This document shows positions 12,031 to 33,750 of a stretch of 64,000 bases of DNA, in pieces. The DNA is from Spiroplasma endosymbiont of Diplazon laetatorius (GTDB taxonomy: Bacteria > Bacillota_I > Bacilli_A > Mycoplasmatales > Mycoplasmataceae), in the NCBI RefSeq assembly GCF_964019625.1, contig NZ_OZ026458.1, positions 620,001 to 684,000 on the forward strand, given 5' to 3'. Under the pieces are notes generated by a model. It did no database searches. It was given only the letters and a program-made list of their open reading frames with translations, and was not told where the DNA came from. Numbering within the stretch: the stretch's first letter is position 1; every line of letters starts with the position of its first letter. Position numbers and translations under genes: made by a program.

Positions 12031-12054
12031 ACACAACGTTAAATAAATATTAAC

Positions 12055-12402: not shown

Positions 12403-12580
12403 AATTTTTTCTCCTTTTTAAAAGAATAACAAAAAAATACCTTAATTAAAAGGTATTAATATTAGTATTTTTGAAAAAAAATTCTTTAAATTTCATTAGC
12501 TATTTTTTAACATGTTCCAGGAAGCATTTAAAATAAATCAATGTTTATGGTAAATTTTAAAAAATACATTGGAATATTTT

Positions 12581-14050: not shown

Positions 14051-14061
14051 ATAATCACTCC

Positions 14062-14280: not shown

Positions 14281-14922
14281 ATATTCAACTTCTTTCTTAA
14301 CTTGTTTTTTTTTTTTTTTTTGATAAATTTAAATTGGTATTATTTTTTGTGAAGAGGAAATAGTACTAAAAGCACTATTTATAGTGTTTTTTTTGTTTTA
14401 GTTGGTAAATCTTGTGCTTTTTTTATTTTTATTTATGGTAGGTTTTTAGGCGGTAATTTCTAGGTGCTTTTTTCATTTAAACTGCTTATTTTTTAAAATC
14501 AGAGATAAGCAATTTAACTATATATTTAATCTAAATATATTTATATCGTAGGAAAAATATCTATTGCCACAAATTTAACTTTTTTATAATTAAAAATTAT
14601 AAATTGCCAGGAAAGTTAAATATAAATATTTTTTAGTTACTATAGTAAAACTATAGATACAATTTTAAAATTTTTTAAATATCTTAAAATTGTGAAGAGA
14701 AATTTAATAATTTAATTTTTAAGGCATTTAAAAAACCTTAAACTTTTAATAACATTTTTTTATCATTAATCACAACCCTTCTTGCTTATATACTTTTATG
14801 GACCTATAAAGATACATAAAATAACACACAAACAAATTTTAACTTTATAAGCCCGTAAAAATATATAAGCTCTTAAATAACATTTTTTTAATAACGGCAA
14901 ATGGCGCTAAGGCGCTGGGTAA
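14281..14922. other. long non-coding region of the plectrovirus, probable replication origin area
   Basis: 642 nt without a credible gene. It contains a T17 tract (14305-14321), a hairpin CACTAT-TT-ATAGTG with T8 (about 14379-14397, terminator-like on the plus strand), a dyad TTAAGG...CCTTAA near 14719-14741, two copies of TGTGAAGAG(G/A)AA (14348, 14691) and a GC-rich patch with a direct repeat GGCGCT (about 14903-14917). Rolling-circle phages keep their origins in such intergenic regions; the exact nick site is not identifiable by eye. Confidence 0.5.
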
Positions 14923-15864
14923 CTAATTTATAACTAAACCTTTTTTGTTTAAAATAATATCTTGTTCATGTTCTTTTATTTTTTCCCTACCTTTTTTCAT
15001 TCAATATGAATATTTATCAGGTAAATAAGTAGCATAACCATCAATTATTGCCTGCCTCATTTTTATAGCTATATGAATATATGGATCTAAATCAACTTCA
15101 AAATCAAAAATTTTTAATCTATCACAAACTAAACCAAATAAAAAATCACATTTACTGCTTAATTTAAACAAATATAAATTTTCTGTTTTAACCATAAATT
15201 GAGTTAAATCATTAGGATTAATATTTAATACTCCAATTTTAGTTTTAGGATTAGAACAATTACTACTAAAATGATAAGACTTGATATTTAAATCATATTT
15301 ATTTAAATCTTTTGAGTCCAATTTATTTACTTTACTCATATATTTAGATAAATATTTAACTACTTTTTTTCTTCCTGTTGTTCCACCTTTTACTTTAACA
15401 TTTCAATTAATACCATGAGGTCAATAAGTAAGAATTATAGAGTTAGGAATATATACATTTAATATTATGTGGAAATGAACTGCTCCACGTTTTTGATATT
15501 CATATATAGATACATATTTTAATTCTTGGTTTTTACGAAATTTAGATCGCTTTTCGCTATAAAATCAATATTTTAATTTTTGAAAAAATAACTTTAAATC
15601 ATATTTAGCTTGTTTAATATCTTGCATATTTTTTGCATAAGTGAGAGTAAGAAATGATAATGTTTTTTGGTTATAAAAGTTATGAAATGATTTTCTAATA
15701 AATCTACCTTTACTGCGAATTTTACTATTATTTAATTTTTCTTTATTTTTACCAGTATTTTTAACACCACCCTTATTACGCAAATTACTCTCATAACTAC
15801 TTAAAGGCAATATACTAGTCCTTACCATATCTCCATAATAAGTCTTTGAACAATAATATTCCAT
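14923..15864 (-). CDS. plectrovirus rolling-circle replication initiator (HUH family)
   Basis: 313 aa with TGA-Trp codons. The three Rep motifs are visible in order: motif 1 FLTLTYA, motif 2 RGAVHFHIIL with the HxH metal site, and motif 3 KVVKYLSKYMSK carrying the nicking Tyr. This is the Spiroplasma plectrovirus ORF2-type Rep, which nicks the phage origin to start rolling-circle replication. The SD AAAAAGGAG precedes ATG 15862-15864. The frame is intact, so replication could still be possible. Confidence 0.82.
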
Positions 15865-15974
15865 AAATAAAAAAACTCCTTTTTAAAGAGTTTCAATCAA
15901 CATTATAAAATAATAAAGCAGTATTAATACTATTAATTAATAATAATTAAAAATAACTACTATTTAAGTTTTAA

Positions 15975-15993
15975 TGTGAAGAGAAACTTAATA
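15975..15993 (+). repeat. third copy of the TGTGAAGAGAAA motif
   Basis: TGTGAAGAGAAACTTAATA here matches 14691-14709 (TGTGAAGAGAAATTTAATA) and partly 14348-14361, all in the same orientation. The two best copies flank the rep gene, which suggests an origin or regulatory iteron. Confidence 0.5.
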
Positions 15994-16083
15994 TTTATCT
16001 AATTAAAGAATAACATAATAATCAATTATTAAGCAATTCTTTTCTTCCGTTGTGTTATTTTATTAAATTAAGTATAACATACG

Positions 16084-16257
16084 TTACACTTTTTTATTTA
16101 TTATTGATAGAATTAATATACCTAAAACAAAAAATGCAGGAATTATTCAATCCTGTATATTAAATATGATTATAAATAAATACATTATATTTAATATTAT
16201 AAATGCAATTTTCAAAGTAAATGGTAATAAATTAAATTCCATTGATTCTATCTCCAT
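16084..16257 (-). CDS. small plectrovirus-type membrane protein
   Basis: 57 aa from ATG 16255-16257, or 52 aa from ATG 16240-16242, which has GGAG 9 nt upstream. Two hydrophobic helices (LKIAFIILNIMYLFIIIF and WIIPAFFVLGILILSII) dominate. Small two-helix proteins encoded upstream of rep are typical of filamentous phages of Spiroplasma. It could be a coat or accessory membrane protein. Confidence 0.5.
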
Positions 16258-16635
16258 ATTTTTTAAATTTATTTAATCCTTCAATTATAGAAATTGATTT
16301 TTTTATGATTAGAATAATTGTATAGTGCAAATTTTAATAAATTAATATTCTTTTGATGATCTAAATAAATAGAAATAGCAATTTAAAAAAACTATAATTT
16401 GTTTTTATATAATTTATGCTTTTATATCATTTTTATAATATTTTAAAACAATTTTAAATATTTATATTGAGTTGATTTTTTTTAAACATAATTATCAATA
16501 TTTATATCTTTTAATCCATTGATTATTTCTTTTTAAAACATTTATTTATATAAATATTTTATAACATATGTAAGAAAATTATATTCATTAAGATTTTCGT
16601 AAATAAAAAATAATTTAAATATGAAAAATTATTTT
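16258..16635. other. AT-rich non-coding stretch ending in the rmuC terminator
   Basis: Almost pure A/T with stops in all frames. At about 16601-16642 AAATAAAAAATAATTT...AAATTATTTTTTATTT forms a long AT-only hairpin that overlaps the end of rmuC and probably terminates it. Nothing else was seen. Confidence 0.6.
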
Positions 16636-17778
16636 TTATTTAACTAATTTTTCATATTTGTTTCTTAAAGATTTTTCCTTAATTTTTATCTGTCCGTAAT
16701 GTTTAGTCATTTCTTCAATTGATTTAAACAATTTATTCATTTCTTCATCGTAGTTATCAATATATTTAATAATTTTACCTAAACCATCAATTTTTTTGTC
16801 GTATTGATTTATATTATCAAATAAACTCATGTACTTATCAATTGATTCAATTATTGCTATAAGAGTACTTGGCCCAGCAATAATAACCTTACTGTTAAAA
16901 GCCTTATCAATTATTTTAGGCATTGAATTAATATAAGAGAAAATTCCCTCACTAGGAACAAACATAATAGAATATACAGTTTTGTCTTCTTCACTTACAT
17001 ATTTAGAGGTTTCTTTAACCCTTTCTAAAACATGCTCTTTAAATTCTGCTTCTTTTTTCTTAAACTCATCACTTGTAATTTCATAATTTAAAAGACTTTG
17101 ATAAGCATTAAAAGGAAATTTAGAATCTACAGGTATGTTTACAAATTTACTTCCATCACCTTTAATGAATAAGTCAACAACAAGTCCCTTTCCTTCATCT
17201 TTTTTTATTAATTTGTATTGTCTTTCATAAATTAAATTATTATTTTTATTTATCCCTGTAATGTTTGTAAGTATTCTCTCTAATAAATATTCCCCAGCCT
17301 TACCTGCTTTATTATTTTGGCTAAGTAAATTATCTAATTTAAAAACTTTTTCTCTAACTTCAATAATTGGAGCTGATTGCTCGGTAACTTTTGTAAGCAT
17401 TTCTCTAACTTCTTTATTTTTTAAATTCATTTTTTCTTCAGTTGATTGAGTTTGTTTTAAAATGAAATCTCTAACACTTTCACCTAAGTTATTCATACCT
17501 TCAACATTTGATGTTGCATTTTTCAATACCATTTCTTTTAAAGATTGTTCAAAATTATTAAGTTTTTCATTGCTGGTATTACTTAAATTATTAATATATT
17601 CTTTTAACTGAGCATCGGATCTGACATTAACCTCAGAGAGCTGTGCTTGAAAAATTTCAAGGTCTCTTTTATCAACACCTTCTACTTTAATATTATTTTT
17701 TTTAAATAAAAATAATATTATTAAAATAACGCAAAGAATTATAAGAAGTGTTAATAATACTAATATTATTATTTCCAT
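16636..17778 (-). CDS. rmuC: RmuC-family DNA recombination protein
   Basis: 380 aa without internal stops. An N-terminal membrane helix (about 1-25) is followed by a coiled-coil region (about 40-150) and the conserved RmuC nuclease-like core: GKAGEYLLERIL, VDLFIKGDG, IPVDSKFPF, then VYSIMFVPSEGIF and KVIIAGPSTLIAII. RmuC is a PD-(D/E)XK-related protein that limits recombination at inverted repeats. Its ATG overlaps the TAA of a 29-codon ORF (TAATG), and plectrovirus sequences lie on both sides. Confidence 0.88.
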   Translation of the reverse strand: MEIIILVLLTLLIILCVILIILFLFKKNNIKVEGVDKRDLEIFQAQLSEVNVRSDAQLKEYINNLSNTSNEKLNNFEQSLKEMVLKNATSNVEGMNNLGESVRDFILKQTQSTEEKMNLKNKEVREMLTKVTEQSAPIIEVREKVFKLDNLLSQNNKAGKAGEYLLERILTNITGINKNNNLIYERQYKLIKKDEGKGLVVDLFIKGDGSKFVNIPVDSKFPFNAYQSLLNYEITSDEFKKKEAEFKEHVLERVKETSKYVSEEDKTVYSIMFVPSEGIFSYINSMPKIIDKAFNSKVIIAGPSTLIAIIESIDKYMSLFDNINQYDKKIDGLGKIIKYIDNYDEEMNKLFKSIEEMTKHYGQIKIKEKSLRNKYEKLVK

Positions 17779-17867
17779 TATGATTTCACCAACATACTTT
17801 TAAACTTATCCATTCATTTTATTAAAAAAATATAAAAACAAGCATTTTTATAATTAAATTCATTCAC
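17778..17867 (-). CDS. 29-residue plectrovirus-type micro-ORF coupled to rmuC
   Basis: GTG 17865-17867, preceded by GGAGGAAGGAATT, opens a frame reading VNEFNYKNACFYIFLIKW and ending KSMLVKS. Its TAA overlaps the rmuC ATG by one base. It has one TGA-Trp. The very strong SD supports translation; a leader-peptide role for rmuC or a leftover phage gene are both possible. Confidence 0.5.
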
Positions 17868-18504
17868 AATTCCTTCCTCCGTCTTTCTCTATTCTCTTTT
17901 AATTCCCTAATTTCTTTTTCTAATTCAAGTATTCTTTTTTCTTTTTCAAGAGACTCAATTTTATTAATCTCTGGTTGTTTATTTTCATTTAAAATAGCTA
18001 ACTCGTATACTTCTTGTAATTATTCTACAGTTTTCTTTTTCTGTCAAATCTTAATGTAGTTATTTTTAATATCTTCTAATTTTTGTAACTTAATTTTATT
18101 TAATTCTGGCTCTAAAATTTTTAATTCCTCATAACTACACAAATTAACTTGAATAGTTTTACCATTTAAACTTAAATAAGATTGATCTAGAAGAGAGTTA
18201 AACTTAGAGTTTAACTCTTCTAGTAAATCATCAATATATTTAAAGACTATTATTTCAAACATTTTATAAGAATTAGAATTAATACTTAATCTTGTGTCTT
18301 TACCAAGAAAACTATTTATTAAATCAGAAACTCTATACGAAAGATCTAAATCTTTAAATTTTTCTTCTTTTTCAATTTTTAACTGTGCTTTCTCTTTTAA
18401 TTTCTGAATATTTTTTCTTTCATCTTCTTTTAACATTTTTGAATATTGTCTTTGTTCTGCTGTAGGAACTCCTAGCAACCAACCAACTCTCTAAATATTG
18501 ACAT
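17822..18504 (-). pseudogene. plectrovirus protein gene broken by frameshift and stop
   Basis: ATG 18502-18504 has a good SD (AAAGGAATTTTAAT) and encodes MSIFRELVG. One base is then missing, and the next frame continues LLGVPTAEQRQYSKMLK... for about 150 residues. TAA 18020-18022 interrupts it, yet the same frame runs on as LQEVYELAILNENK... with a coiled coil (EKEKRILELEKEIREL) to TAA 17822-17824. Restoring the lost base and the stop gives one protein of about 227 aa. It is charged and helical; the exact phage function is unknown. Confidence 0.6.
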
Positions 18505-18543
18505 ATTAAAATTCCTTTCTTTAATATTTAAACTTATTATAAT

Positions 18544-18573
18544 AAAAAAGTATGTATTAAACATACTTTTTTA
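18544..18573. terminator. bidirectional hairpin terminator
   Basis: AAAAAAGTATGT-ATTA-ACATACTTTTTT forms a perfect stem with A/T tails. Confidence 0.8.
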
Positions 18574-18760
18574 TTATTCTTTAGTTTTATTATTCTTATT
18601 TACTTTTGATAATAAATTTGCTTGTCTTTTTTCTAAAATATTTTGTCTTTTGACTAATTTAAATATTTTTTTAATATTTTTGTTTTCTATTCCTAAAACT
18701 CTATTAGATCTAAAAGATTTATAATCATAATAAAAGGAAGTTAGAATATGTCAAATTGCG
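18574..18760 (-). pseudogene. C-terminal remnant of a basic phage-like protein
   Basis: The frame reads AIWHILTSFYYDYKSFRSNRV... and ends KVNKNNKTKE at TAA 18574-18576. It is closed upstream by TAA with no start. The composition is Lys/Asn-rich. It partly overlaps the plus-strand Cys-rich micro-ORF. Probably a decayed plectrovirus gene. Confidence 0.35.
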
Positions 18761-18864
18761 TTTTATCTTGTCATGCATGTCAATGTTCATGTCAAGGAAC
18801 TGGAAGTAATCATAAATTTAAGGATTGTAAACACAATTTTTCAGGTAATAATATCAAAAAATAA
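18748..18864 (+). CDS. 38-residue cysteine-rich peptide
   Basis: SD AAAAGGAAG stands 8 nt before ATG 18748-18750. The peptide has six Cys, mostly in the first half (MSNCVLSCHACQCSCQGTG), and a basic tail. It is followed by a hairpin and T run (about 18870-18900). The Cys spacing suggests metal binding. A comparable micro-ORF lies at 33834-33935. Confidence 0.55.
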   Translation: MSNCVLSCHACQCSCQGTGSNHKFKDCKHNFSGNNIKK

Positions 18865-19294
18865 TATTAAAAAAATACTCTAAAAATAGTGTTTTTTTTA
18901 ATTCAACTTCATAAATACCTTTACACATTTTTAATTTAAATTCTTTATTTTTAAATTTTGCCATATTTTTATCTTTTAGTTTCCTAATTTTGTTTCAAGT
19001 ATTTTAATTTTATTGATTTATATCTGTTTTGATTTAATATTTCTTGATCAATTTCTTCAGTTATTTTAATCTGTTTTTTCTTTTAAATTTTTACATATTT
19101 TTGATAAACTTTATCTAATAAATATTCATTTTTTAAAAGTATCTATAAGATTAGCAAATATATAAATAGTTATAATGTTCTATAAAAATTTTTTATAGAT
19201 TTAATTATAATTTAAAATTAAGACTATTTTTTGTAAAGTATGTATAATTTCTTTAAGATTTATTTTTAATATATCTTAAAGAAAGGATTCATAT
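18865..19294. other. non-coding stretch with decayed frames
   Basis: AATACT...AGTGTT plus T7 (about 18875-18898) is a terminator for the micro-ORF. Between 18900 and 19090 the minus strand carries scraps such as MAKFKNKEFKLKMCKGIY and QIKITEEIDQEILNQNRYKS, each closed by stops. Upstream of 19295 is the promoter region of the membrane protein gene. No intact gene seen. Confidence 0.5.
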
Positions 19295-19729
19295 ATGAAA
19301 AATATAAAAATATCTTGATTATCAATGACAATAAGTTTTTTAGTTTTAACATTATTTTCAATATTAATGTTCTTTTTAAAACAAAATACTTTGCAACTAT
19401 TTGGATGATTTTCTGCAAGTAGTTTTCCTGGTAATCAAATTAAAATTTGAGCAATTTTATTAATGACTTTTTCTATCTTAGGATTAGTTGTTTCTATATT
19501 GATGATTGCTTTAAATTTCAAAGATATTGATAGTCTAAATAAAATTGCAACTTATGCACATATTTTAGTTGCATTAGTTATTCTGTTTGTGGTTTTAATG
19601 TTTATAATTTCAGCTATAATGTCAAAAACAAATCAAACTACGCCAATCATTATACTTTCATTATCAGCAATTGCTGGTAGTGCTGTGATTGGAACTACAG
19701 CATGAGTTGCTAAAGAAGAATTAATGTAA
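19295..19729 (+). CDS. four-helix membrane protein
   Basis: 144 aa with four TGA-Trp codons. SD AAAGGATT precedes ATG 19295-19297. Four hydrophobic segments are visible (SMTISFLVLTLFSILMFF, IWAILLMTFSILGLVVSIL, ILVALVILFVVLMFIISA, TPIIILSLSAIAGSAVIG) with short charged links. The family is unknown. It stands alone, with a terminator at 19733-19772. Confidence 0.65.
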
Positions 19730-19732
19730 GAA

Positions 19733-19772
19733 ATAAAATAAAAAAAGAGAATAATTTTCTCTTTTTTTATTA
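19733..19772 (+). terminator. hairpin terminator
   Basis: AAAAAAAGAGAAT-AATTTTCTCTTTTTTT follows the stop codon directly. A second hairpin, GAGCATTTT...AAAATGCTC, lies at about 19869-19890. Confidence 0.7.
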
Positions 19773-19851
19773 TGCCTTTTAAAAATTTTGTATTCATGTA
19801 AACTTTTTTGAAAATAACTTTTCAAGTTTTTTAATAAGCTCATACTTATTA

Positions 19852-20062
19852 TTATTTATAAAAAAATGAGCATTTTAAAAAATGCTCTAAAAGATTATAT
19901 TCTTCAATCTTACATAAAAAGTCATTTATATAAGTTTTTCATTTTTTAGTTTTAAAAATCATATAATTTGGCATATAGATACAAGAAAAGATATTATCAA
20001 CTTCTTTTATATCAATTTTTGACTGTGGTAAAAAGTAAGGGGGTAATGAACTTATTAATTAA
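19852..20062 (-). pseudogene. unidentified gene fragment
   Basis: An open frame without a start reads SSLPPYFLPQSKIDIKEVDN... and PNYMIFKTKKWKTYINDF to TAA 19852-19854. The composition looks protein-like, but the frame is truncated upstream by TAA. It lies downstream of the relaxase remnant and may be another plasmid-derived scrap. The rest of 19773-20104 holds nothing recognisable. Confidence 0.3.
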
Positions 20063-20104
20063 TTTTGTTTAAATGAATATCTTTAAAAGTTCCAAAATTT
20101 AGTC

Positions 20105-21023
20105 TAATTTTTGTTTTAATTGATTAGAAAATAATTCAATTTTATTAATTGAATTATTTTTACTTTTATTAATATCTACATAAATTTGTTTTGCATCTTT
20201 TCATGAAGTATTTACATTATTAGAAAATTGATCTCATGATATTGCAAATTTTTCTCTTAAATTATGTTGACTTTCTAAAAATCTAGAATTATATTTTTGC
20301 TGATTTTTGATATTTATATCTAATCTGGCTCTAAACTCAGCTTTAGAATAAAAAATACCATTTTGTTTTCAAACTCTTCTTCTTTTGGGTTTGCCTTACT
20401 TATTTTAAACCTTATTTTTATTGCTATCTAAAACATATTAATAAATTGTAGGTTCCTTTTAAAAAAAACCCCAAGTGAATATTATTATCTGTATTTGTAT
20501 ACATTGAAAAAAATCAATTTACTTTTTCAAAGTCCATACCATTGTCACTAAAAAAACTTTTAAGTTCAATGTTTAATGATTTTTGAACTTTTTCAGGATT
20601 ATAAAGATTGTTCTCTTTAATAAAATCATCTGAAAAAGAGATAATAGCATCTCAAAAAACTTGCTTATCATCTAAATTTTTCATATCTTTTCTTAATTCT
20701 TTTACTTCTTCTATAATCATTAGTCATTTTTTTCAATAAATTCCAGTACTCTTAAAGTTTTTGTTAATTTCTTCAAGCATTTTATTATATTTAAATTTTT
20801 ATTCTCTTGAACCAGTTCTTAAATTATCTAATAGTTTTACTTGTTCATCATCAATATCTAGATTAAAAACAGCATCAGGTCTAGAAATATAGTTTAAATA
20901 ATCTCTAGACCTATAATAATTATCTCTAGACTTTTTAATCTTATTTATTACCTCTTTTGTTAATGGATCAATTGGTTGATTAAAATTTAAATTTTTAAAA
21001 ATAACTCCAGGAGTTATTTTCAT
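20105..21023 (-). pseudogene. MobL-type relaxase, broken
   Basis: ATG 21021-21023 has the SD GAAAGGAAAA. The N-terminus (NYYRSRDYLNYISRPDAV) and a central block (FWDAIISFSDDFI, VNWFFSMYTNTDNNIHLGFF) resemble MobL/relaxase proteins of Firmicute and Spiroplasma plasmids. TAA 20799-20801 is in frame. After LGFFLKGT the frame is lost and resumes as KPKRRRVWKQNG...LKQKLD, ending at TAA 20105-20107. The usual HIH metal motif reads NIH. The gene is dead but marks former plasmid or ICE integration. Confidence 0.6.
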
Positions 21024-21030
21024 AGTTTTC

Positions 21031-21150
21031 CTTTCTATTTTCCCCAAGGAAAATTTAATAAAGATAAATAAAAAACTAGCAGTTGCTAGTTACTAAAATA
21101 TTAATTTAAACAAAAAAATAGAGTCCTAGCGCTGCCAGTGCTCTATTTAC
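21031..21150 (-). repeat. copy 2 of the ~115-bp intergenic module
   Basis: Counterpart of 11850-11975. On the minus strand AAATAGAGCACTGGCAGCGCTAGGACTCTATTTTTTT is a terminator for the kinase remnant, followed by the dyad ACTAGCA-GT-TGCTAGT and the SD of the relaxase gene. Confidence 0.7.
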
Positions 21151-21179
21151 ATTATAAATTTAATAACACATAAATGTAA

Positions 21180-21812
21180 TTAAGAATTGAAGATAGAGAT
21201 GAAAGTCTTCTCTAATTCTTCGATATTTTCAAATCTTTCTTTCATACCTTTATTAATAAAATTAATTATCTTTTCATTATTAATTTCAATAATATTTGTT
21301 TTACTAGTTACTAAAAATATTAAATTATTAGTAAATGAATATAACTCATGTTTTAAATCATAATTTTTAAAACAATCTACCAATAATGAAGGATCATTAA
21401 ATGAATCCTTCATTATTGTATTTATACTAGTTTGCTCAATTGTTGGTACTTTAACTAATCCAAAATCTGATATCTTTAATAATGGAAAACTATCATAGTC
21501 TTTTATTAAAATATTTTTAGGAGGTAAATCTCTATTAAATAATTATTTAAAAGGAATATATTTAACTCCTTTAATTAATTGAATTCCCATAAGTTTTCTA
21601 TATTCTAAAGATAAGTCTGGATATTTTTTCAAATAATTTTCGAGATTATAGTCAAGATACTCCATAATATAACTATTTTCTTCTTCTAAATAAGAATAAA
21701 CTTTAATAATATAAGGAGAATTTAATTCTTTTAAAGTCTTAAATTCTATTTTAAATCCTTCAATTTCTTTTTCATCTAATTCTTTTTTTGTTTTTTTAGG
21801 TATAGAGCACAT
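21180..21812 (-). pseudogene. Ser/Thr protein kinase remnant
   Basis: One frame runs from MCSIPKKTKKELDEK to FISIFNS with TAA (21543-21545) in the middle. Before it is a hinge-like part (IIKVYSYLEEENSYIMEYL); after it come NRDLPPKNILI (HRD loop with His changed to Asn) and ISDFGLVK (DFG). The Gly-rich loop and the Lys of the N-lobe are missing. It was a eukaryote-like kinase, now inactive. It lies just downstream of the HNH/Z1/MORC cassette and may once have belonged to it. Confidence 0.65.
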
Positions 21813-21953
21813 ATATGTGCAAAATGTTTAACTGCGTATTTACAGATAACTTAAATCACCTTTAATTTCTTAATCTAAATAAAAACTGCTTTTTATAGCA
21901 TTTTTTTTATATTTAATTGATTTATTTTCTACCCACTTATTTTTATCCTCGAT
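21813..21953. other. short gap after the defence cassette
   Basis: 141 nt, AT-rich, no gene. AAAAACTGCTTTTTATAGCATTTTTTTT around 21885-21910 could form a weak hairpin ending the cassette. Confidence 0.3.
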
Positions 21954-22787
21954 TTAAACGAATTCAAATAGTTCATCTACATTATCCTTAATTTTATCTC
22001 CATTACTTTTCTGAATACCATATGTAGTCTCATAGTTTCTTATAATTTTTTTAATACCACCTTCGCCAAAAAATGATTTGAATTCCTTACTCTTAATTTT
22101 TTCATTGAATAATTTAGTAATTATTTCATCTCTATCTTCTGATAAATGTATAGCTCTGTGACACTCTGGACATAAGGCTATTAAATTATAGTAATTATCC
22201 AAATTTATATCATAATCAATTTGAACTTTTTCATTATAAGGAATAAAATGATGAACTTCAAAATACATTTTTCTATCAGAAAACTTTATAAAAGTTTTAT
22301 TTTTTAAACAACTTTCGCAATGACTAACTTCTTTTAAATAATCATCTATTATTTTTTTATTCCTAACCATTTTTATTGTTGTAATCTCTTTCAAATCTTT
22401 CTTGGGATTGTATTTTTTTAGTTTATAGTTTTTTGTTCTTCAACTCTTATATCATTCCTCAGAAAATGAACTAGTATTTCCATTAAACTTGCTCTTTTTA
22501 AAGAACTCATCCATTATATTTACTTGAAGACTTGTTTTACCTTTTAATCCTGCTTTCGGTAATCCACATCAAACTCTAAATAAATAATGTATATTATCTA
22601 TTTTAAAAGATCAAGATTCTTTTGTCCTAACATTAAAATCTTCAACATTATTTAATATATATTCCATAATTTCTTTTCGAACAAATTTCAGAGGCATATT
22701 ATAGTCTATATATTTAAAGAAAGCTTCCACACAGACATATTCATCTCTATATGTTCAAGCAACCCTTATTTTTTTAACCTCTTGCAT
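21954..22787 (-). CDS. HNH endonuclease, last gene of the MORC/Z1 cassette
   Basis: 277 aa with TGA-Trp codons. The HNH domain lies in the second half: CESC (about 157-160), EVHHFIPYN with His179-His180, and CPECHRAIH (about 206-214), so two zinc pairs and the HNH core are complete. The N-terminal 130 residues (VAWTYRDEYVCVEAFFKYIDY...) have no known domain and may recognise DNA. It overlaps the Z1 gene by 14 nt, so the two are translationally coupled. The second HNH protein of the cassette shares the EVHHFIPYN core. Confidence 0.82.
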
Positions 22788-24894
22788 AACCTTCAACCTC
22801 TATCCCAGGAAAGTAAACATTATATGCTAATTGCTCATTTGGCAATTTCTCTCCATTTTTTTTGAATCTTATTTTATAAATGACAATAAGAATTTTATCT
22901 TCATTAGATGAATATTTTTGAAGATTTGAATCACCAAAATATTTATCTTCATCAAATTTTTCATCACTTCTTTTACCAGCAGCAGAAAGAGTGAATATAT
23001 CTTTTTCACCATGTAAGGTACGTACTTGCTCATCTTGATCTGATCTGATTAAGATTGTTTTAACTTTCTTAGTTTTATAGTTTTTACCTTTTAGTAACTG
23101 AGAGTAATCAACGTCAATTTTGTTTAGAATAAATTGTTCAATATTCTCGTTTTTTGAGAACTCTTCTCAATCTGCATATTCAATATATTTACTATTAACA
23201 CTTTTACCATAAATTTCTTCTCTACCTTCAGTTCTAAGTTTTGACTCGTAATCTCATTCTAAGTTATTTGTATCATGAAATATATTTTGTGTTTGTCACT
23301 TTTTGATACATATGTATCTTGTTTTAATTACATTTGGTCTTGTTATTCTCTCCTCTTTTGGCAAAGAAAACAATAAATTACCAAGAAAAGTGTCTATATC
23401 TGTATCTCCAGCTTCAAATTGCTCAAGTTCCTGTCATAATTTTTCTTCTAAATTAGCAATCATAAGGTACATTTCCTTTAAAGGTTCGGTGGTGAAAATC
23501 TTTATATAATCTAATATTTTTTTTCTATAACCAAATCATCTAGCTCTTTGTAAAACAGTATCTGCATTATTTTTATTTGCTATTCTAGTTATGTAAGTTA
23601 CAATTAAATTTTCCAAAGTAACCCCTCGCTGTAGCAAATCAGAACCAATATATATAATGTAATTATCCTCTATTTCTTGTATTTTAAGCGCATCTTTCGT
23701 TCCGTTTATTAAACGAATATGAACTTCACCAAGTATATCTTTGAACTTTTGAATAAATTCTTTATCTTCCTGATTTGAAAAATCTAATTCCCTATTAAAG
23801 AGCATTCTAAATCCTTCATTTATAAAGTCTTTAAACATAAGAAAATCTATGTCTTGTTCATCTTGAGAATATTCCCTATATTCACTAAGCATTTTGTTTA
23901 GTTGACTTCTTATTGTTGACTGTTTTTTAGTTACTCTTTCAATATGAATAAGCATTTCATATTTTTTTAGTGGTGTGCCTTTTTTTAAATGATCAATGAT
24001 ACAACACAAAAAATATGATATAGATCTTTTCAATGAATCTGGAGATTCCATTTCATATCTTTCATCTTCAAACAATTCTCCATTGATGTCATTTATTATC
24101 TCAATATATTTATTCGTTTCGCTTAAGTGGAATTCTTCTAGACCACAGTATCCTTTTCCTGGTTTAGTTAATTTAATAAATTTAGGAGAAAGTAACTCTT
24201 GTTTTTCAAGAAGCAAATTGGCATAAGGTGTCGCAGTAACTGTAAGATAGGCAAAATTTTTTAAGTTTTTAGTAAGCTCTGTAACTTGCTTATTTATTTT
24301 TGTTTGTTCCTTACCTTTTTCTCTTTTTGTAAAATTACCATCCAAACTAGCTTGATCACCTTCATCATCAATAATAAGCACTTTTCTCTTGTCAAAAATA
24401 TCCTTATTTTTAATTATTGAATTAATAGTTTTTTCCAGGTGTTTTATTTGTTTTAAAATAGTTACGATTGCCTTTTTGTTTTCTTCTGGATCAAAAAAAT
24501 TGGCATCAGATCCTTCTGTTATATTTTCAGGTTTATCAAATATTTCCGTTTTAAAAACCTTACTTAATTGTTTTATTTCACCTTTTCTTTTGAAATTACC
24601 AAAAACCTCCTTTGCTCTTATAAAGTTCTGTTTAAGCAAAGTTTTGTCTCAACCACCAAGGATAATAACAGTATCAAATCCCCTTTCAAAAGCAACAGAA
24701 ATAACTCCTAAAAAATTTGAAGTTTTTCCAGACTGTACCTTTCCAACGATAACTCCAACATTATTTTTTGTAATTAAGTTATCATCTATACACTCACCAA
24801 CAATGTCTTGAGCTTTTTCAAGAATTTCTAATGTTCCTTCTTCTCCAATTTTTGGAATATAAACTTTTTTAAAGTTACTTATAAAATCACTCAT
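22774..24894 (-). CDS. Z1-domain helicase-like ATPase
   Basis: 706 aa joined across TGA codons. Walker A GKVQSGKTSN (about 51-60), the DEXD-like IIDDEGDQAS (about 174-182), the helicase motif III-like TVTATPYA (about 218-225) and a late GSDLLQRGVTLENLIV...QRARWFGYR block match Z1-domain proteins, superfamily II-like ATPases found next to MORC/MutL-type ATPases and DNA methyltransferases. It should move on or remodel DNA in the cassette. The gap to the MORC gene is 11 nt; the end overlaps the HNH gene. Confidence 0.85.
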
Positions 24895-24905
24895 TTTAAT
24901 ACCTC

Positions 24906-26543
24906 TTAGTTATTTTCAATATAGTTTAATAGATAACTATTAATTACTTTTGTTATTTTTAATGGGTCAACTTTTGAATCTATTGACTCAGTTCTTAATT
25001 TGATAATTGCAGCAACGTATGCAAAAGAGAAAGTCTTAATAAATATTATAAAATCAGGCATTTCTGTATAAGGTTTAAAGAACTGGTGTTCTATGTGAAT
25101 AACAACTTCAAAATAACCTTTTGCATCATCAATTCTTTTTATAGTTATTCAGTCTTTTGGTTTTTGGTTATCATCTATAGTCATTTTTAGTTTTTTGCCT
25201 TTTTCCAAATACATTATATTGTCTAATTCTTTTACACTTTCTTCTCTATCGTCATTAACTTTTTTTTGGTTACCATCAAATTCATGTGATGCTAGTTCAT
25301 ATTCTTTCTTATTGTTTGCACTTATTATTTTCTGTACATCATTTCCAAGCATTTTCATAATTTGATCATTAGAGTTTTTTATTTCGTTAGAAGATATTTT
25401 AGATATAGGAGATGGTTCAACTTTTCTCAAAATCATAGATCAAGATTTTAATTTTGCTGTTTCTCTAGCTATAAAATTTTTAAACGCATCCTCTAAACCA
25501 TCATCTCAACTAAATCCATCTTTAGCTTGATTTGCAGGGAAAGTGTCTAAATCTAATTCCCCATATAGTCTTTGATATGAGAAACTACTTTGATCACCAA
25601 ACACTTCTTTAGGTCTATAGTTATTTTCAAAACCACCTATAATTGCTCTACCTCTTCTGAAAAGTGTAAATCCTGCTTTACTTCTTGAACCTTCCTTACG
25701 AATACCCACAAATCCCTTGACCGGATATATTTCTCCTTCAAATTCAAAAGATCCATCAATAGTTTTTGTACAGACTGTAGGTCTTACTATTCCTTCAATT
25801 TCACCAGGTTGAACAACTCTGGGTTCGACATCTTCAAATTTCAATGCTGGAACAAGAGATAATTTTTCATATTCAATACCACTATAATCCATCATTTTTT
25901 TATCTTTTAACTCTGCATAAACTATTTGAATATCATTACTCCTTATGTCTCTTCTATATATACCAGTTAACAAATTAACAAGATTTTCTTTTTGATTTTT
26001 TGTCCTTATTGGTTTATTCAAATTTTCTAAAGTGATTTTTGTATAGTGTTTTGAGGTTATTTCGTCTTCTACATCAATAGGTATAAAATCAGGACTTTCT
26101 TTAGAAATTTTCTCAATATCCATTACAACTCTATATTTTTTTTTCGATCCTAATTTAGAAGACTCAACTGTTCATTTATCACTAAATCAAGTGGCCGCAG
26201 TTTTTAAACCCATTCCAAATTCGTTTCTACCACCTTTATTTTTAGGTGGTTTACCAAGTATTACAGCTCTTTTAAAGTTTTCCAATTCCATACCGTAAGC
26301 GTTGTCAACTATTTGCAAAGTAGAATCTTTACCAGAATTAGTATAAAGAATATAAATCTTTAATTTATATTCTTTATCATTATTTTTATAGTACTGTTGG
26401 ATCTCAGCTTTTTTTTCAAAAAAACTTGCCGTTGAGTTGTCCACGAATTCAGCTAATGCATATGGTTGTGTATAACTCAACCTTTTATATGTGGCATATA
26501 TACTTGTGTCTGGTCTAAAGTCTAATTCATATTTATTTTCCAT
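24906..26543 (-). CDS. MORC/MutL-like GHKL ATPase
   Basis: 545 aa. The GHKL ATP-binding motifs are clear: ALAEFVDNS (Glu32, Asn36), IVDNAYGM (Asp80...Gly84) and GGRNEFGMGLKTAA (about 104-116). A following domain contains RRGRAIIGG and KPIRTKNQK, like the S5/transducer part of MutL and MORC proteins, and the C-terminus is partly coiled (about 430-480). Prokaryotic MORC homologues clamp DNA on ATP binding and are known from predicted restriction-like systems. The SD AGGAATAATT precedes ATG 26541-26543. Confidence 0.83.
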
Positions 26544-26551
26544 AATTATTC

Positions 26552-27619
26552 CTAACCCCTTTTAAATAAGTCTTGATATCATTTTATCAGTTTTTCTATA
26601 TTATATTCAGGATAGACATCTTTAAATTCATCTGTAACTATTTTTTCCGCTATATCTCTTATAAGTTTTTCTTGTTCCTCTTTTGAAGAAAGGTGTATTT
26701 TTTTATGACAATTAGGACATAGAGTTACTAAATTGATTTTTGAGTCTAGTGTTTTTATAAAATTCATTTGTGTCTTGTTGTTATAAGGTATAAAATGGTG
26801 AACCTCAAAATACTGAATTAATTCATTTTTTTTAGTGAAAGTAGACTTTGTTGAACAAGCTCTACAAAATTGATTTGCAATCAAAAAATCAGAAACTATT
26901 TTGCTATCTCTTTTAAGTTTATTATTGTAATCCACACTCATAATATTTTTCTGATCAAAGTCCTCAATAGATTCTTCAATTAATTTTACATAATCAAAAA
27001 AATCATCATTTTCTATATCCTCAAAATTTTCAATTACATTTTTTTTGTTTGTAATTACGTTACCACTTAAGTAAGCATCAATAAGAACTTCTAAATTTTT
27101 TGAAAATATTGTTCCCTTATGATCGACAAAAAATTCAATATTAGTGTTTTTTAAAACAAAGTTGCATATATCTTCATAACTAACTCAATAAGATGAATAA
27201 CTTTGATCTTTTTTATTTGAATTATTTTTATATCTTTTTATAAATTCACTTATATCGGAAGTAATAAAAAATAAAGTTTCCTCACCTATATTCAAAAGAG
27301 CAAAATAAGAATTTATAGAATTATCTTCAAAAAGTTTCTTTTTAACTTGAAATCTCTTATTGCTATTTCCAAATATACCTGAGTTTTTTAGATAAACAAT
27401 ATTAATAAAGTAATTTTTATTTTGAAATTCAAATTTTAAATAGTTTTCAGATAACTTTTTAGAGTCAGATTTAAAATTAAGAGTACTCATTTTAACTCTT
27501 TTATATAATGATTTTATAAATATGTCAAAAAAAACTCTTGATTTTTTTTGTCTTTCATCAAATACATTTACATTTTCTTCAATTTCTAAACCATCTACTA
27601 TATTTTTATAAATTCCCAT
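26552..27619 (-). CDS. HNH endonuclease with a distinct N-terminal domain
   Basis: 355 aa; the frame from MGIYKNIVDG continues through TGA-Trp145 into the HNH part. The C-terminal HNH domain has CRAC (about 252-255), EVHHFIPYN (His274, His275) and CPNCHKKIH (about 301-309). The N-terminal 220 residues (FDERQKKSRVFFDIFIKSLYKR..., FVDHKGTIF) are not recognised and could be a target-recognition domain. It lies between the methyltransferase (13-nt gap) and the MORC ATPase (8-nt gap), so it is likely the restriction nuclease of the cassette. Confidence 0.8.
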
Positions 27620-27632
27620 TTAATTTTGTCCC

Positions 27633-28916
27633 CTAACTTCAAAAATTATTTAATATATAAATGATTAATTGTTTCACAACATTTATATTTATTGAGTTTC
27701 CAAATTGTTTTTGAGTAATAAAGTCATGTCTCTGCGAACGTCCAAATAATTCTGAATAAGATTTAAAACCTAAATCAATATCTTCATCTCTAATTTTATA
27801 GAAATTTTGTAATTTCCCAGTTTCATTAGGAGTTAAATATCTTCACTTTTTTCTATTATCATCAAATATCAAAGGTGTTTGTACCATTGCAACAAGAGTT
27901 GGAAAATCTTCTTTTCTTCTGCATCTAATACCAGACTGTCTCAATTGAATAAAAGAGTTTTTTATGTCAAAATTTCCAATACCTGCTTGTCACTCAAATT
28001 TTTTTTCTCTAGCTTGTCATTCATCTACATTATATTTTTTTCTTCATTTATTAATATATGTTGAATTATCATCATATACTTCCCACATATCTCTAAAGTA
28101 TTTCTTCCTTCATTCAGAAATAGTGCTGTTATTAAGTATTTTTTTTCTTTCAACTATATTTGTAAATAAATAATCAAATCATATAACAGGCATAGTTCTT
28201 CCTTTTGGCGGTTTTACATTTTTTAAAAACTCTCCCCATGCCTCTATTGCTATTTTTACTTTTTCTTCTACTAAACCATAGTAAAATTCATCTACGTTTT
28301 TTTCTACTATTTCATTACTAAAGTATTTTATTTCCGAATATGGTTTAGGTGAATCTATAAACTCTTTATTTTCAACCAAATCTTTTCTAACACCAAGAAT
28401 ATATACTCTTTCTCTTTTTTGAGGTACCCCTATTTGTGTAGCAGATATTACGACAGGTTTTTCAGTTGTTAAATAACCCAAATCATTAATAGTATTAATA
28501 ATAGTATTAAATGTTTCACCATTATTATGCTTTACAAGATGTTTAACATTCTCAAGTATAAAATACTTTGGTTTTTTTATTGATAATATTTCTGCTATTT
28601 CAAAAAAAAGAGTCCCTCTAATTTGATCTAAAAAACCCATTTTTTTCCCTGCATTTGAAAATGTTTGACAAGGAAAACCTGCAAATAAAAAATCATGATC
28701 TTCTATATCACTTTTTTTAACGTCTCTAATATTTATTATTTCATCTATATTGTAATTAAAGTTTATTGAATATACTTTTTTTGCATAATCATCTATTTCA
28801 CTTACAAATACACATTTTGGATTATTTTTTTTGTCAATTTCTTTTAAGGCTGCTTTTAAAGCATAATGAAATCCACCAATTCCAGCAAAAAGATCTATAA
28901 ATTTAACTTCTTTCAT
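27633..28916 (-). CDS. DNA (cytosine-5)-methyltransferase, active-type
   Basis: 427 aa with many TGA-Trp codons after residue 245. The C5-MTase motifs are complete: I IDLFAGIGGFHYAL (about 7-20), IV GFPCQTFSNAG with Cys83, VI LENVKHL (about 121-127), VIII QKRERVYILG, and X QFGNSINVNVV near the C-terminus, with a target-recognition region between VIII and X. It modifies cytosine within an unknown site. It is the first gene of the five-gene cassette, preceded by an SD-like GCGAGG and a TATTAT-type promoter. Confidence 0.9.
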
Positions 28917-29042
28917 AAAAACCTCGCTTTTTTAATAATAAAGTTTTTTTTATATTATTACAAGCCTTTTAATGAAAAAAATACTATGTTTTCTCCAAAT
29001 TAAATAACATTATATTTTTACAATAAAAAAATATAGATTTCT

Positions 29043-29897
29043 CTACATTTCACAACATCCTAATAAAGTTGAATCCTCTAGATCAATAGCAAATTCAAAA
29101 TTAGTTTTATAAAAAATATCTTCTGTTGTTTTTCAAACTTTTTCCATAATTTGTTCAACAAAGTCTTGGTTTTTCATAGCAACACTTCCACCAATTACTA
29201 TGATTTCTGGATTTAAAAAGTAAATTGAAGAAGATATTAAACTAACTAATTTTTCTTCAATATCTTTAAAGAAACTATTAACTATTTCATTTTCTTTTGA
29301 TTTGTATAATTCAAAAGCTTGGTGAGTATCAATTACTTGTACTCCAAGTTTATTTAATTGTAAACAAATGTTTTTGCCACTTGCTTGAAACTCTATTCCA
29401 CTTCTTTGCACATTTTCACTGTTTCAAATCGGAAGTGCATTTGCTATTTCAAGTGCAGTTCCACTATATCCAGAAAAGATTTTGCCTTCACTTACAAAAC
29501 CAGCTCCAATTCCTGTTGAAATTGTAAAGTATAAAAGTGAATGTAAATCTTTTCTTATAGTATATTGACCTAAAGCAGCTACATTTCCATCATTGTTTAT
29601 TTTTACATTTTCTACATTAAATAAATCTTTAAATTCTTGTAAAACACATTTTTGATTTCAATCAGGTAAATTATAAGTTATTAAAATGGTTCCAGTTTTT
29701 AAGTCTAATGGTCCAGGACAACAAACACCAATATAGTCTATTGAATGGTTTCAAGAATCAACTGTTTCTTTTATTTCTTGTAAGTTTTTTTTCATGTTAT
29801 TTCCATCAGTATCAATAACTTTTTTGTTTATTATTTTGTTATTGTCTATTAATGCAAATCTTATTGAAGTTCCACCAATATCAACAGCTAATTTCAT
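29043..29897 (-). CDS. ROK-family sugar kinase-like protein
   Basis: 284 aa. The N-terminal phosphate motif DIGGTSIRFAL (about 5-15), INNDGNVAALGQ with the catalytic-type Asp, and STGIGAGFVSEGK are those of ROK kinases (glucokinase, fructokinase, N-acetylmannosamine kinase). The ROK zinc site (GHxxx...CxCGxxGCxE) is missing: the region reads EIANALPIWNSENVQRSG. Loss of the zinc motif leaves substrate specificity open. It starts 19 nt after the methyltransferase gene and ends near a weak hairpin. Confidence 0.75.
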
Positions 29898-30666: not shown

Positions 30667-31827
30667 TTATTTGTATTCAAAAAGTTTTTCAAGTATTTTT
30701 TCAACTACAGTTACATTAACTGTATTTTTTAATTGTTTATAAGCTTGTTTGATGTTTTTGTTTATTTGAAAGTCTTCTGGAAGACTAGCTAATCTTGAAC
30801 ATTCTCTTAAAGTTAATCTTCTTTTAAAAGGTCCATAAATTGGAACTTCTGAAATAGTGTTTGTTGTTTGAACAACATTTGGCTTTTGAATTTTAATACC
30901 AGAAGCTTTAATTTGAATTAATCCATCATAAATATTTTTGATATCTGTATTTGATTTTCAATCAAGTTTTCTATAAGAAGATTTATTTCTTAATATGTCA
31001 TAGTTTTTAGCCAATCAAGAATCAACAAACTTAATATTTTTAATATATAAATCTTTGTTTTTGTTAATTACACTTTGTTTTGATAAAGGCATTTGTTGAA
31101 CTATTCTACTTGCTGTTTTAAAATAATCAATTCATATTGGAAAATCAACATTTTCCATATTTACGTTTTTTTTAAATTCATTTCAAGCATCTAAAATAAT
31201 TTTTTCATTAGGTGTTATTTCATATGTTTTAAAATCAAATTCATCTGAGTTATTAAATATGTTTTCAATACTATTCTTTTTCTTTGAAACTTTTCTTTTA
31301 AAGTTAATTTCTAAACTATTTTCTTTCACAAATTCTTTTTTAATTTCAACAACATAAGAACTTACCTTTGCATAAGGTATTCCAAAATGATGAGGACTTA
31401 AAAGTAATGGCTTTTCAGTTGTTACATATCCTAATTTTTTAAAGATTGATTTTAATTCTTTTCAAGTATTTCCTTTTTCATTAACTGCTAAGTTTTTAAT
31501 GTTTTCAAATAAGAAATATTTAGGACTTTTAGCTTCAATAACTTTTGTCATTTCAAATAATAAGTCAGTATCACTGTATTCATATCAGCTTTTTTCTGTT
31601 GTTTTATTAAATGTTTTCGAAGGAAGAGAACATAAAAGAATATCGTGATCTGGTATTTCTTTTACATTTATGTTTCTAATATCCTTACTTGCAGTTATTC
31701 CAAAGTTCTTTTTATAAGTTTCTAAGCTATAACTGTTTTTTTCACAACTTCAAACACATTCACCATCAAATTTTTTCATTGCATAATTAAATGAACCAAT
31801 TCCTGAAAATAAATTTATAAATTTCAT
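30667..31827 (-). CDS. C5-methyltransferase homologue lacking catalytic residues
   Basis: 386 aa, open throughout under code 4, starting at ATG 31825-31827 behind GGGGGTACTT. The fold is recognisable: FINLFSGIGSFNYAM (motif I), PKYFLFENIKNL (motif VI), and a C-terminal KNTVNVTVV (motif X). But motif IV reads LPSKTF (Ser70 in place of the catalytic Cys, Lys in place of Gln), and motif VIII reads FGIPYAKVSSYVV without the Q-R-R residues. It cannot methylate by the known mechanism. It is paralogous to the active enzyme at 27633 (shared IW-DY and DHD segments). A DNA-reading or inhibitory role is possible. Confidence 0.75.
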
Positions 31828-32315: not shown

Positions 32316-32687
32316 CTATTTTATATATACAAATGATTGCGGGGCACAAGATACTCCAAAATCTTCCAATTCTCTAGGTTCTTCAAATTCTATATACTCA
32401 TCGATTTCATAAGCTATTGCTTTATTTTTATTCTGATAATAATGGTAATAAAAATTTTTGTCCACTCCAGAAAATTCCTTTGTAAATTTTCAGATATTTT
32501 TTGGTGTATCTATGTGTATCTTACCTATTTTTGCTATTCCAACAACTTTAGAAACAGGTGCAGTAGCGTATACAAAAATTTCGCTTGGGCTGTACTTTCT
32601 TGCTTCAACTTTTCTAAACTCGAACCTTTTATTACCGCTTTTAATATTTTCTATATGTTCACTATGTATTGACATTAAAATTTTCAT
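32316..32687 (-). CDS. ASCH-domain (PUA-like fold) protein
   Basis: 123 aa. The start MKILMSIHSEHIENIKSG with KRFEFRK and the strand FVYATAPVSKVVGIAKI are the signature of ASCH-type domains, which bind RNA or modified nucleotides. The rest is acidic with a short C-terminal tail. It overlaps the preceding GNAT/PUA gene by about 26 nt, so the two are coupled and may cooperate in RNA or tRNA metabolism or as a toxin-like module. Confidence 0.65.
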
Positions 32688-33750
32688 GATTTTTCAACCT
32701 CTCTAAAATTAGTTTATGAATAAGTTCTTTATCTTTAATTGCGAATGCAGGTAAATATAATAATTCAGGTCATATTCCCATTTCTTTTAATGATGAATGA
32801 TTAATAATTTTTCCTTCCCCAAAAGAGAATATATGAAAAAATTTAATTATTATTTTTCTTTCAGAATTGAATTGTTCTTCTAATTCTTTCATTGTAAAAA
32901 CTGAAGTATTACCAACTAATTTTAATCATTCATTTAATAACATTTTTCTTCCATCATAAACCTCAGAAACTATACCAATTCCAGTTACAACTGATTTATA
33001 AGTTTTTGGAGCAATATCACTAATTCTATATTCTAGCAAGAAGTCTCCGCTCTTCGGCAATGAAGCATATTGTATTTTTGTAATGTAAGTTTTACTTATA
33101 CTTATTGAAGAAACGTTAAACTCCTTAGCTTTATTATCAACATTATACAACTTATTGTTAGGTAATAATTTATCGTGATAATTGCTTTCCAAAGGTATTA
33201 AATAATAATCTGAGTCTTTTTATAAATCCCAAATAGGTTGATTGAAATATCATTTATAATTTTTTTTAACTGTATCCATTTTTTGATCAGTAAATTTCGA
33301 CATAACTATTTCATTATTTTTAACACCTGTTTCAATAAATCCTCAAGATTCTAGTACATTATATAATATTTTTTGTTTTTCCTTAAAAAGAGTAACATAA
33401 GCTTCATTAATATTATTATTTTCCATTTCTGAAAAAATTATATTTATGATCGCCTCTGATAATCTTTGAGATTTTATTGAATCATCAATTTTTAATGTAG
33501 ATATTTTTATTCTCTTGCCTATTATTTGCTTAGGTTCAATATCTTCTTCTATTTCATACTTTATTTGCAACATCAAAAATGCTTTAATGTTTTGAAAATC
33601 ATCAAACTTTACATAAGCTTCACAATCTTCGGAAGCTTTTTTGTTAAATCAACTTTCAAAGTCCATTTTTCCATAATCATTTCTAAGAGTATCAAAAAAT
33701 ATATCACTCAGTTTTAAATCTTTTAATTTTATTTTTTTTAAAATTTCCAT
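32662..33750 (-). pseudogene. GNAT-like/PUA-like protein gene with in-frame TAA
   Basis: One frame runs from ATG 33748-33750 (or 33757-33759) to TAG 32662-32664, but TAA 33220-33222 splits it into an N-terminal part of about 176 aa (acetyltransferase-like: NINEAYVTLFKEKQKILYNVLESWGFIE) and a C-terminal part of about 185 aa (PUA/EVE-like strands LLEYRISDIAPKTYKSVVTGIGIV). The reading is continuous on both sides of the stop, as if WDL-(stop)-KDSDYYLIP came from one substitution. It is either a recent pseudogene or two proteins, the second starting at TTG 33190-33192. The N-terminal start has no strong SD. Confidence 0.5.

What the first reader, a model, noticed from the sequence alone, without database searches (positions are those of the whole stretch)
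21954..28916. Five-gene MORC-Z1-HNH-C5 methyltransferase cassette
The genes C5-MTase, HNH protein, GHKL/MORC ATPase, Z1 ATPase and second HNH protein run on one strand with gaps of 8-13 nt and one 14-nt overlap. All key motifs are intact (PCQ, EFVDNS/DNAYGM, GKVQSGKTS/DDEGD, two HNH sites). MORC-Z1-MTase neighbourhoods have been predicted as restriction-like systems, but this version with two HNH nucleases sharing a core is compact and complete. Suggested logic: the MTase marks self DNA, MORC clamps, Z1 translocates, and HNH cuts unmodified DNA.
Basis: partly seen in the sequence, partly recalled or inferred. Interest (0 to 1): 0.85.

Follow-up and report, generated by a model that had tools for sequence, protein, structure and literature searches.

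The report
MORC-Z1 restriction system with HNH nucleases
A Spiroplasma chromosome carries an intact five-gene defence set, of a type predicted in 2008 but, as far as I could find, never tested, in which the usual cutting enzyme has been replaced by two enzymes of a different family: a natural experiment in swapping the blade of an ATP-driven DNA-restriction machine.

Summary
Read with genetic code 4, the minus strand of 28916-21954 encodes an intact C5-methyltransferase, HNH1, MORC ATPase, Z1 helicase-like ATPase and HNH2, with gaps of 13, 8 and 11 nt and one 14-nt overlap. Another species of the genus has the same five genes in the same order, with dN/dS 0.14-0.23. In 60 genomes of the family, HNH1 occurs in 7; in all 7 it lies directly 5' of MORC-Z1 with a C5-MTase in the same gene run. 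HNH2 is present in 4 of 7, so the core is four genes and HNH2 is accessory.

MORC and Z1 carry the exact motifs by which Iyer et al. (2008) defined a MORC + Z1-type helicase class of predicted restriction systems. That class uses a PD-(D/E)XK nuclease (DUF4420); none is present in the seven HNH genomes. HNH-type MORCs form one clade among DUF4420-type ones, so one HNH takeover is likely. A closely similar MTase serves both nuclease types.

The cassette sits at a site where related species carry other restriction systems. Best reading: an ATP-dependent restriction-modification system, a new nuclease variant of a known predicted kind. No function has been tested. A conserved dead C5-MTase lies nearby.

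The parts
27633..28916 (-). C5-cytosine DNA methyltransferase, 427 aa, catalytic PCQ intact
   Evidence: PF00145 2.8e-64; closest solved relatives M.HhaI 1.5e-43; 71% identical orthologue L034
26552..27619 (-). HNH1, 355 aa: N-terminal domain (about 25-190) with PD-(D/E)XK-like predicted fold but no conserved acidic residues; C-terminal McrA-like zinc-ribbon HNH domain
   Evidence: PF01844 1.5e-6; A2 profile to EcoKMcrA 6ghc 3.7e-9; AF2 pLDDT 75; VIA-align Z 10.4 to 6ghc (91 residues, rmsd 2.0) at 228-333 and Z 8.1 to Hjc (105 residues, rmsd 3.4) at 28-189
24906..26543 (-). MORC-family GHKL-S5 ATPase, 545 aa
   Evidence: PF13589 8.5e-15; MORC-specific S5 motif GFTLFRRGRAI and EFVDN box
22774..24894 (-). 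Z1-domain SF2 helicase-like ATPase, 706 aa
   Evidence: PF10593 1.6e-38; PADLOC Helicase_II 6.7e-44 over 10-528; Walker A, DDEGD, DTVLQRARWFG intact
21954..22787 (-). HNH2, 277 aa: different N-terminal domain plus HNH core shared with HNH1; accessory
   Evidence: PF01844 9.5e-8; 40% identity to HNH1 over 132 aa; present in 4 of 7 loci
28917..29042 (-). 126-bp gap between ROK gene and MTase; the only sizeable non-coding gap on the 5' side of the cassette and its likely promoter region
   Evidence: coordinates; one weak promoter-like match at 28963-28935, not above shuffled background

Best explanation
The cassette is an ATP-dependent restriction-modification system of the MORC + Z1 class predicted by Iyer et al. 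in 2008, in which HNH nucleases have replaced the usual DUF4420 PD-(D/E)XK nuclease. Likely working: the MTase puts 5-methylcytosine on its target sequence in the host chromosome. A restriction complex of HNH1, MORC and Z1 (with HNH2 where present) finds unmodified targets on incoming DNA. HNH1's N-terminal restriction-enzyme-like domain probably binds DNA rather than cutting it. MORC closes on DNA in an ATP-dependent way and holds or loops it. The Z1 ATPase moves or remodels the complex along DNA, as proposed for the N-protein of CglI/NgoAVII, and the HNH domain then cuts. HNH2 may supply the second strand cut or a second specificity. Shown here: gene content, intact motifs, co-conservation, purifying selection, nuclease replacement, hotspot location. 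Inferred: all biochemical steps.
For: Domain assignments and intact motifs. MORC and Z1 match the defining motifs of Iyer's MORC family and third helicase type, in which cytosine methylases are frequent partners. HNH1 in 7 of 60 family genomes, always directly 5' of MORC-Z1 with C5-MTase in the same run. Sister systems in the order and class are C5-MTase, MORC, Z1 and DUF4420. DUF4420 absent from all seven HNH loci and genomes. HNH-type MORCs are one clade (97/97) with a DUF4420-type neighbour. dN/dS 0.14-0.23 for all five genes. The 3' side of the ROK gene carries a restriction system in all 8 close species looked at. HNH core relatives in other species sit beside C5-MTases as simple pairs. 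The CglI N-protein (Z1) needs ATP hydrolysis and works with a C5-MTase.
Against: No activity of any kind has been measured. No target sequence is known. The PD-(D/E)XK-like fold of HNH1's N-terminus rests on a model built from 7 sequences (pTM 0.52) and middling Z-scores, so its role is uncertain. That domain shows no profile-level kinship with DUF4420. The cassette is patchy (7 of 60 genomes), which fits restriction systems but also any mobile accessory genes.
Confidence: 0.75

Rival explanations
1. Modification-dependent (type IV-like) action: the McrA-like HNH proteins cut DNA carrying foreign or wrong-context methylation, and the MTase has another role.
For: The HNH core's best solved relative is EcoKMcrA, and PADLOC's best HNH hit is a methyl-directed enzyme model.
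Against: The likeness covers the HNH domain only, and a C5-MTase is in the run in all seven loci. The sister class with the same MORC, Z1 and MTase uses another nuclease. HNH cores of this kind also pair with C5-MTases as ordinary two-gene systems. A methylated-DNA cutter beside an active C5-MTase would risk self-damage.
Confidence: 0.1
2. Two overlapping systems: MTase plus HNH proteins form a plain type II pair that happens to be interleaved with a separate MORC-Z1 pair of other function.
For: C5-MTase plus HNH pairs exist on their own in the same family and at the same chromosomal site. The MTase tree does not follow the MORC tree.
Against: HNH1 full-length orthologues occur only directly next to MORC, in 7 of 7. 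In the loci examined whose MORC belongs to this clade, a nuclease and usually a C5-MTase lie alongside. Gaps of 8-13 nt and an overlap point to one operon.
Confidence: 0.1
3. Host chromosome function (epigenetic or DNA-topology regulation) rather than defence.
For: MORC proteins in eukaryotes act on chromatin; C5-MTases can be orphan regulators (general knowledge).
Against: Patchy presence (7 of 60), accompanying nucleases, and placement in a site that swaps whole restriction systems between species.
Confidence: 0.05

Closest known systems
MORC + Z1-type SFII helicase restriction-modification class of Iyer, Abhiman and Aravind 2008 (C5-MTase, MORC, Z1, novel RE-fold nuclease, DUF4420)
   Same: True MORC motif, Z1 helicase motif DThhQxuRhFG, C5-MTase, one operon; MTase up to 75% identical between the two nuclease types
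   Different: No DUF4420; one or two HNH proteins instead, with HNH1 placed directly 5' of MORC. In the text of that paper HNH is reported with SWI2/SNF2-type operons and with paraMORC1, not with the Z1 type (its Figure 2 could not be read here).
CglI and NgoAVII restriction-modification systems (C5-MTase, PLD-B3 R-protein, DEAD-Z1 N-protein)
   Same: C5-MTase plus Z1 SF2 ATPase; our Z1 protein matches the PADLOC type II helicase model over 520 residues
   Different: CglI is described as three genes without MORC; its nuclease is PLD with a B3 domain, here HNH
MZA anti-phage system (MzaB GHKL ATPase, MzaC Z1 protein)
   Same: GHKL ATPase and Z1 protein together; weak MzaB and solid MzaC similarity
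   Different: Scores are far below the MzaB and MzaC family cut-offs (21.9 of 850; 148 of 1500); no other Mza protein found; has its own MTase and HNH nucleases
Hymenobacter cellulosilyticus plasmid locus (NZ_CP095048: dcm, ATP-binding protein, Z1, HNH endonuclease)
   Same: C5-MTase, MORC-like, Z1 and an HNH gene in one run
   Different: Its HNH is not detectably related to HNH1 or HNH2 and Z1 appears split, so it looks like an independent or decaying case

Membership tests
MORC family (Iyer 2008) | GHKL ATP-binding motifs | tested here: met
   EFVDN, DNAYGM and GRNEFGMGLKTAA conserved
MORC family (Iyer 2008) | S5-domain motif GhXhhpXXRhl, which separates MORC from paraMORC | tested here: met
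   GFTLFRRGRAI; found in all 17 loci examined, in 17 of 3400 shuffles
MORC + Z1-type restriction class (Iyer type 3) | SFII helicase with DThhQXuRhFG motif | tested here: met
   DTVLQRARWFG
MORC + Z1-type restriction class (Iyer type 3) | partner nuclease of RE fold with E-D-ExK motif (DUF4420) | tested here: not met
   PF14390 absent from G000 and the six other HNH1 genomes and from the seven loci with a local profile; HNH proteins instead. Hence filed as a variant, not a plain member
MORC + Z1-type restriction class (Iyer type 3) | restriction of unmodified DNA | not testable with these tools
   needs experiment
CglI/NgoAVII type | R-protein with PLD nuclease and B3 domain | tested here: not met
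   no PLD or B3 Pfam hit in any of the five proteins
CglI/NgoAVII type | Z1-containing SF2 ATPase with C5-MTase | tested here: met
MZA | MzaB and MzaC at family cut-off | tested here: not met
   21.9 bits against 850, 148 against 1500
Type IV McrA-like | HNH domain of the McrA kind | tested here: met
   6ghc E 3.7e-9; Z 10.4 over 91 residues, rmsd 2.0
Type IV McrA-like | domain that reads modified DNA | tested here: inconclusive
   no Pfam domain in either N-terminus; the predicted fold of HNH1's N-terminus is RE-like, HNH2's model is too poor

The most novel reading that the evidence does not exclude
The HNH-type system is a distinct machine in which a catalytically silent restriction-enzyme fold in HNH1 reads or holds the DNA while two paralogous HNH domains (HNH1 and HNH2) each cut one strand under control of a MORC clamp and a Z1 motor. 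The nuclease was swapped while the methylation target stayed the same, which would mean that target recognition lies in the shared ATPase subunits rather than in the nuclease.
Probability: 0.2. Interest if true: 0.7.

Novelty: new variant of a known kind. Interest (0 to 1): 0.52.

Why it matters
Prokaryotic MORC proteins have been tied to restriction by gene neighbourhood since 2008, and they are the relatives of the eukaryotic chromatin MORCs, yet I found no tested example of this class in the literature available here. This compact, intact set, with close DUF4420-type sister systems that use a closely similar methyltransferase, allows a direct test: what do MORC and Z1 do, and which subunit reads the target? 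Any system in which the cutting enzyme was exchanged while the methyltransferase and ATPases stayed is well suited to answer that.

Tried and rejected
(1) HNH1's N-terminus as a decayed DUF4420: hhalign of the HNH1 and DUF4420 alignments gave probability 0.1, E 0.58, so kinship is not supported beyond the broad RE-like fold. The conserved lysine (K78) is there, but the residue two before it is Y, Y, Q, K, P, E, N in the seven orthologues, so a working PD-(D/E)XK site is unlikely. (2) B3-like recognition domain in HNH1, as in R.CglI: no such match listed, but an unlisted family is not excluded. (3) HNH2 structure: AF2 pLDDT 50, structural matches not informative. (4) GTDB-wide pattern scan for HNH1 gave only Spiroplasma sp. 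TIUS-1 and one weak contig; that scan needs exact short patterns and is not proof of absence. (5) Full-length HNH1 outside the family: none in 392 phylum genomes, where matches outside the family covered mainly the HNH half. (6) Promoter and terminator scans gave no more than shuffled sequence. (7) Solved structures for MORC and Z1: no significant sequence match. (8) The second C5-MTase (31827-30667) as part of the cassette: rejected, because it is syntenic in species that lack the cassette and is absent in G020, which has it.
Full report
Observation. With TGA read as Trp (code 4), the minus strand from 28916 to 21954 holds five intact ORFs: C5-MTase (427 aa), HNH1 (355), MORC (545), Z1 (706) and HNH2 (277). 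The gaps are 13, 8 and 11 nt and the last pair overlaps by 14 nt. With code 11 the frames are broken. Pfam, PADLOC and NCBIfam scans confirm each family. The genome is a single 979-kb contig with one Z1 match; a spiralin-domain protein in the window fits Spiroplasma.

Motifs. The MTase has PCQ, ENV, the QxRxR region and GNS. MORC has EFVDN, DNAYGM and GRNEFGMGLKTAA. Z1 has GKVQSGKT, DDEGD, TATP and DTVLQRARWFG. Both HNH proteins have two CxxC knuckles and HH...N...H. HNH1 and HNH2 share only their last 130 residues (40% identity, E 4e-26; profile comparison 99.9% probability), and their N-termini differ.

Co-conservation. Z1 occurs in 61 of 298 genomes of the order. I fetched the surroundings of 40 of these loci and read their gene order. 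Locus L034, in another species of the genus, has the same five genes in the same order. L043 (Spiroplasma sp. TIUS-1) has HNH1-MORC-Z1-MTase-HNH2; L042 has all five in another order; L035, L037 and L051 lack HNH2. A profile search for HNH1 in 60 genomes of the family finds full-length orthologues in 7, each directly 5' of MORC-Z1. HNH2 is found in 4 of the 7. All five genes evolve under constraint between the window and L034 (dN/dS 0.14 to 0.23; synonymous sites are near saturation, so the ratios are rough).

What it derives from. Iyer et al. 2008 (PMC2292703) predicted restriction systems built on MORC. Their third type has a helicase with the motif DThhQXuRhFG together with an RE-fold nuclease, and such neighbourhoods often hold a cytosine methylase. 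Our MORC carries their MORC-specific motif GhXhhpXXRhl exactly (GFTLFRRGRAI) and our Z1 protein carries the helicase motif exactly (DTVLQRARWFG), so the ATPases belong to that class. Outside the family the operon is C5-MTase, MORC, Z1, DUF4420 (L106-L110, and in Mollicutes L044-L046). In the seven HNH genomes DUF4420 is not found, either in the loci or genome-wide. The eight family genomes that do have DUF4420 have no full-length HNH1; with these small numbers that disjointness alone is not significant, but the locus-level replacement is clear. One Mollicute locus (L065) has a NO VEIN C-terminal-domain protein in place of either.

Trees. HNH-type MORCs form one clade (97/97) with DUF4420-type neighbours, which fits one nuclease takeover (L047, the nearest neighbour, is grouped with the DUF4420 type by alignment only; its own Pfam scan was below threshold). 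Z1 agrees with weak support. The MTase does not follow: the MTase of HNH-type L051 is 72-75% identical to those of L044 and L047, while their MORCs are 33-38% and their Z1s 27-33% identical. The region between motifs VIII and X, which holds the target-reading part in C5-MTases (established knowledge), is also conserved between the two types (60-66%). The two nuclease types therefore probably protect the same or very similar sequence. This is an inference and would put target recognition outside the nuclease, or require both nucleases to read the same site.

Where the HNH came from. The HNH core is closest to EcoKMcrA among solved structures. In the same family and in other genomes of the phylum, relatives of this core sit beside C5-MTases as simple pairs (L113, L115, L142-L144, L171, L173). 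A plausible source is therefore a local type II pair. The AF2 model of HNH1 (pLDDT 75, pTM 0.52, 7 sequences) gives its N-terminal domain a fold resembling Holliday-junction resolvases and other PD-(D/E)XK enzymes (Z 8.1 to Hjc over 105 residues, rmsd 3.4, followed by many of the same kind at Z 6-7). The acidic residues are not conserved, so the domain is more likely to bind than to cut. Z near 8 is not strong, and no sequence kinship with DUF4420 could be shown.

Location. The ROK-kinase gene at 29043-29897 and a PQ-loop gene at 10803-11321 are conserved neighbours. Between them, or directly 3' of ROK, eight close species carry different restriction systems: the MORC-HNH cassette (window, G020), a PLD-ResIII helicase with C5-MTase and a third large gene (G103, G057, G109; the helicase was family-scanned in G103 and G057, where the third gene is GmrSD; G109 rests on equal gene sizes and the MTase match), a C5-MTase plus a 376-aa protein with a sub-threshold HNH match (G037), and a C5-MTase/HNH pair with a Z1 system downstream (G070, G091; in G091 a GHKL ATPase and DUF4420 are identified). 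This is a restriction-system exchange site and supports the defence reading.

Mechanism. CglI/NgoAVII, a C5-MTase system with a Z1 ATPase, needs N-R protein interaction and heavy ATP hydrolysis, and its authors propose translocation (PMC4267653). Iyer et al. proposed that MORC loops DNA between recognition and cleavage sites. Combining these, the likely order is recognition of unmodified target, ATP-driven clamping by MORC and movement by Z1, then HNH cleavage. All of this is inference. HNH2's accessory status suggests that HNH1 alone suffices.

Verdict. A real, intact, co-conserved system; a new nuclease variant of a predicted but, as far as the papers held here show, untested class. An HNH pairing on a Hymenobacter plasmid, with an unrelated HNH protein, shows that HNH partners are not unique to Spiroplasma. 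The literature search covers open-licence papers only.

Noticed in passing
window 30667-31827 (-); orthologues L126:11137-12297 and L127:10889-12049: A second, full-length C5-MTase whose catalytic PCQ is PSK (PPK and PEK in two other species), with motif VIII and X residues also altered. It is syntenic with a SAM-methyltransferase and ROK gene, 74-79% identical, dN/dS 0.20-0.24: a catalytically dead C5-MTase kept by selection. Function unknown; a DNA-binding regulator is one guess.
   Followed up: partly
window 11322-29042, and the matching sites in L126, L127, L034, L170-L173: The site 3' of a conserved ROK gene holds a restriction system in all eight close species looked at, of at least four different kinds: a restriction-system exchange hotspot.
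   Followed up: partly
window 14923-15864 and 20424-20780: A rolling-circle-type Rep protein (REP_ORF2-G2P 1.1e-20) and a fragment with weak MobL relaxase similarity lie between the cassette and the far border of the variable region: likely remains of a mobile element.
   Followed up: no
window 21543-21812: 89-aa protein-kinase fragment (Pkinase 5.8e-7, just under the curated cut-off) downstream of HNH2; the neighbouring short ORFs have no convincing family match, so it is probably a broken gene.
   Followed up: no
window 32316-33192: Two genes matching PADLOC candidate defence families PDC-M11B (6.6e-40) and PDC-M11A (2e-23, only the C-terminal half of the model). A second PDC-M11B homologue lies near a Z1 system in L063.
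   Followed up: no
L065:1296-2621: C5-MTase, MORC and Z1 with a NO VEIN C-terminal-domain protein in place of DUF4420 or HNH: a third nuclease-slot variant.
   Followed up: no
L149:6617-12770: Hymenobacter plasmid with C5-MTase, MORC-like, Z1 (apparently split in two frames) and an unrelated HNH_2 protein in one run.
   Followed up: partly
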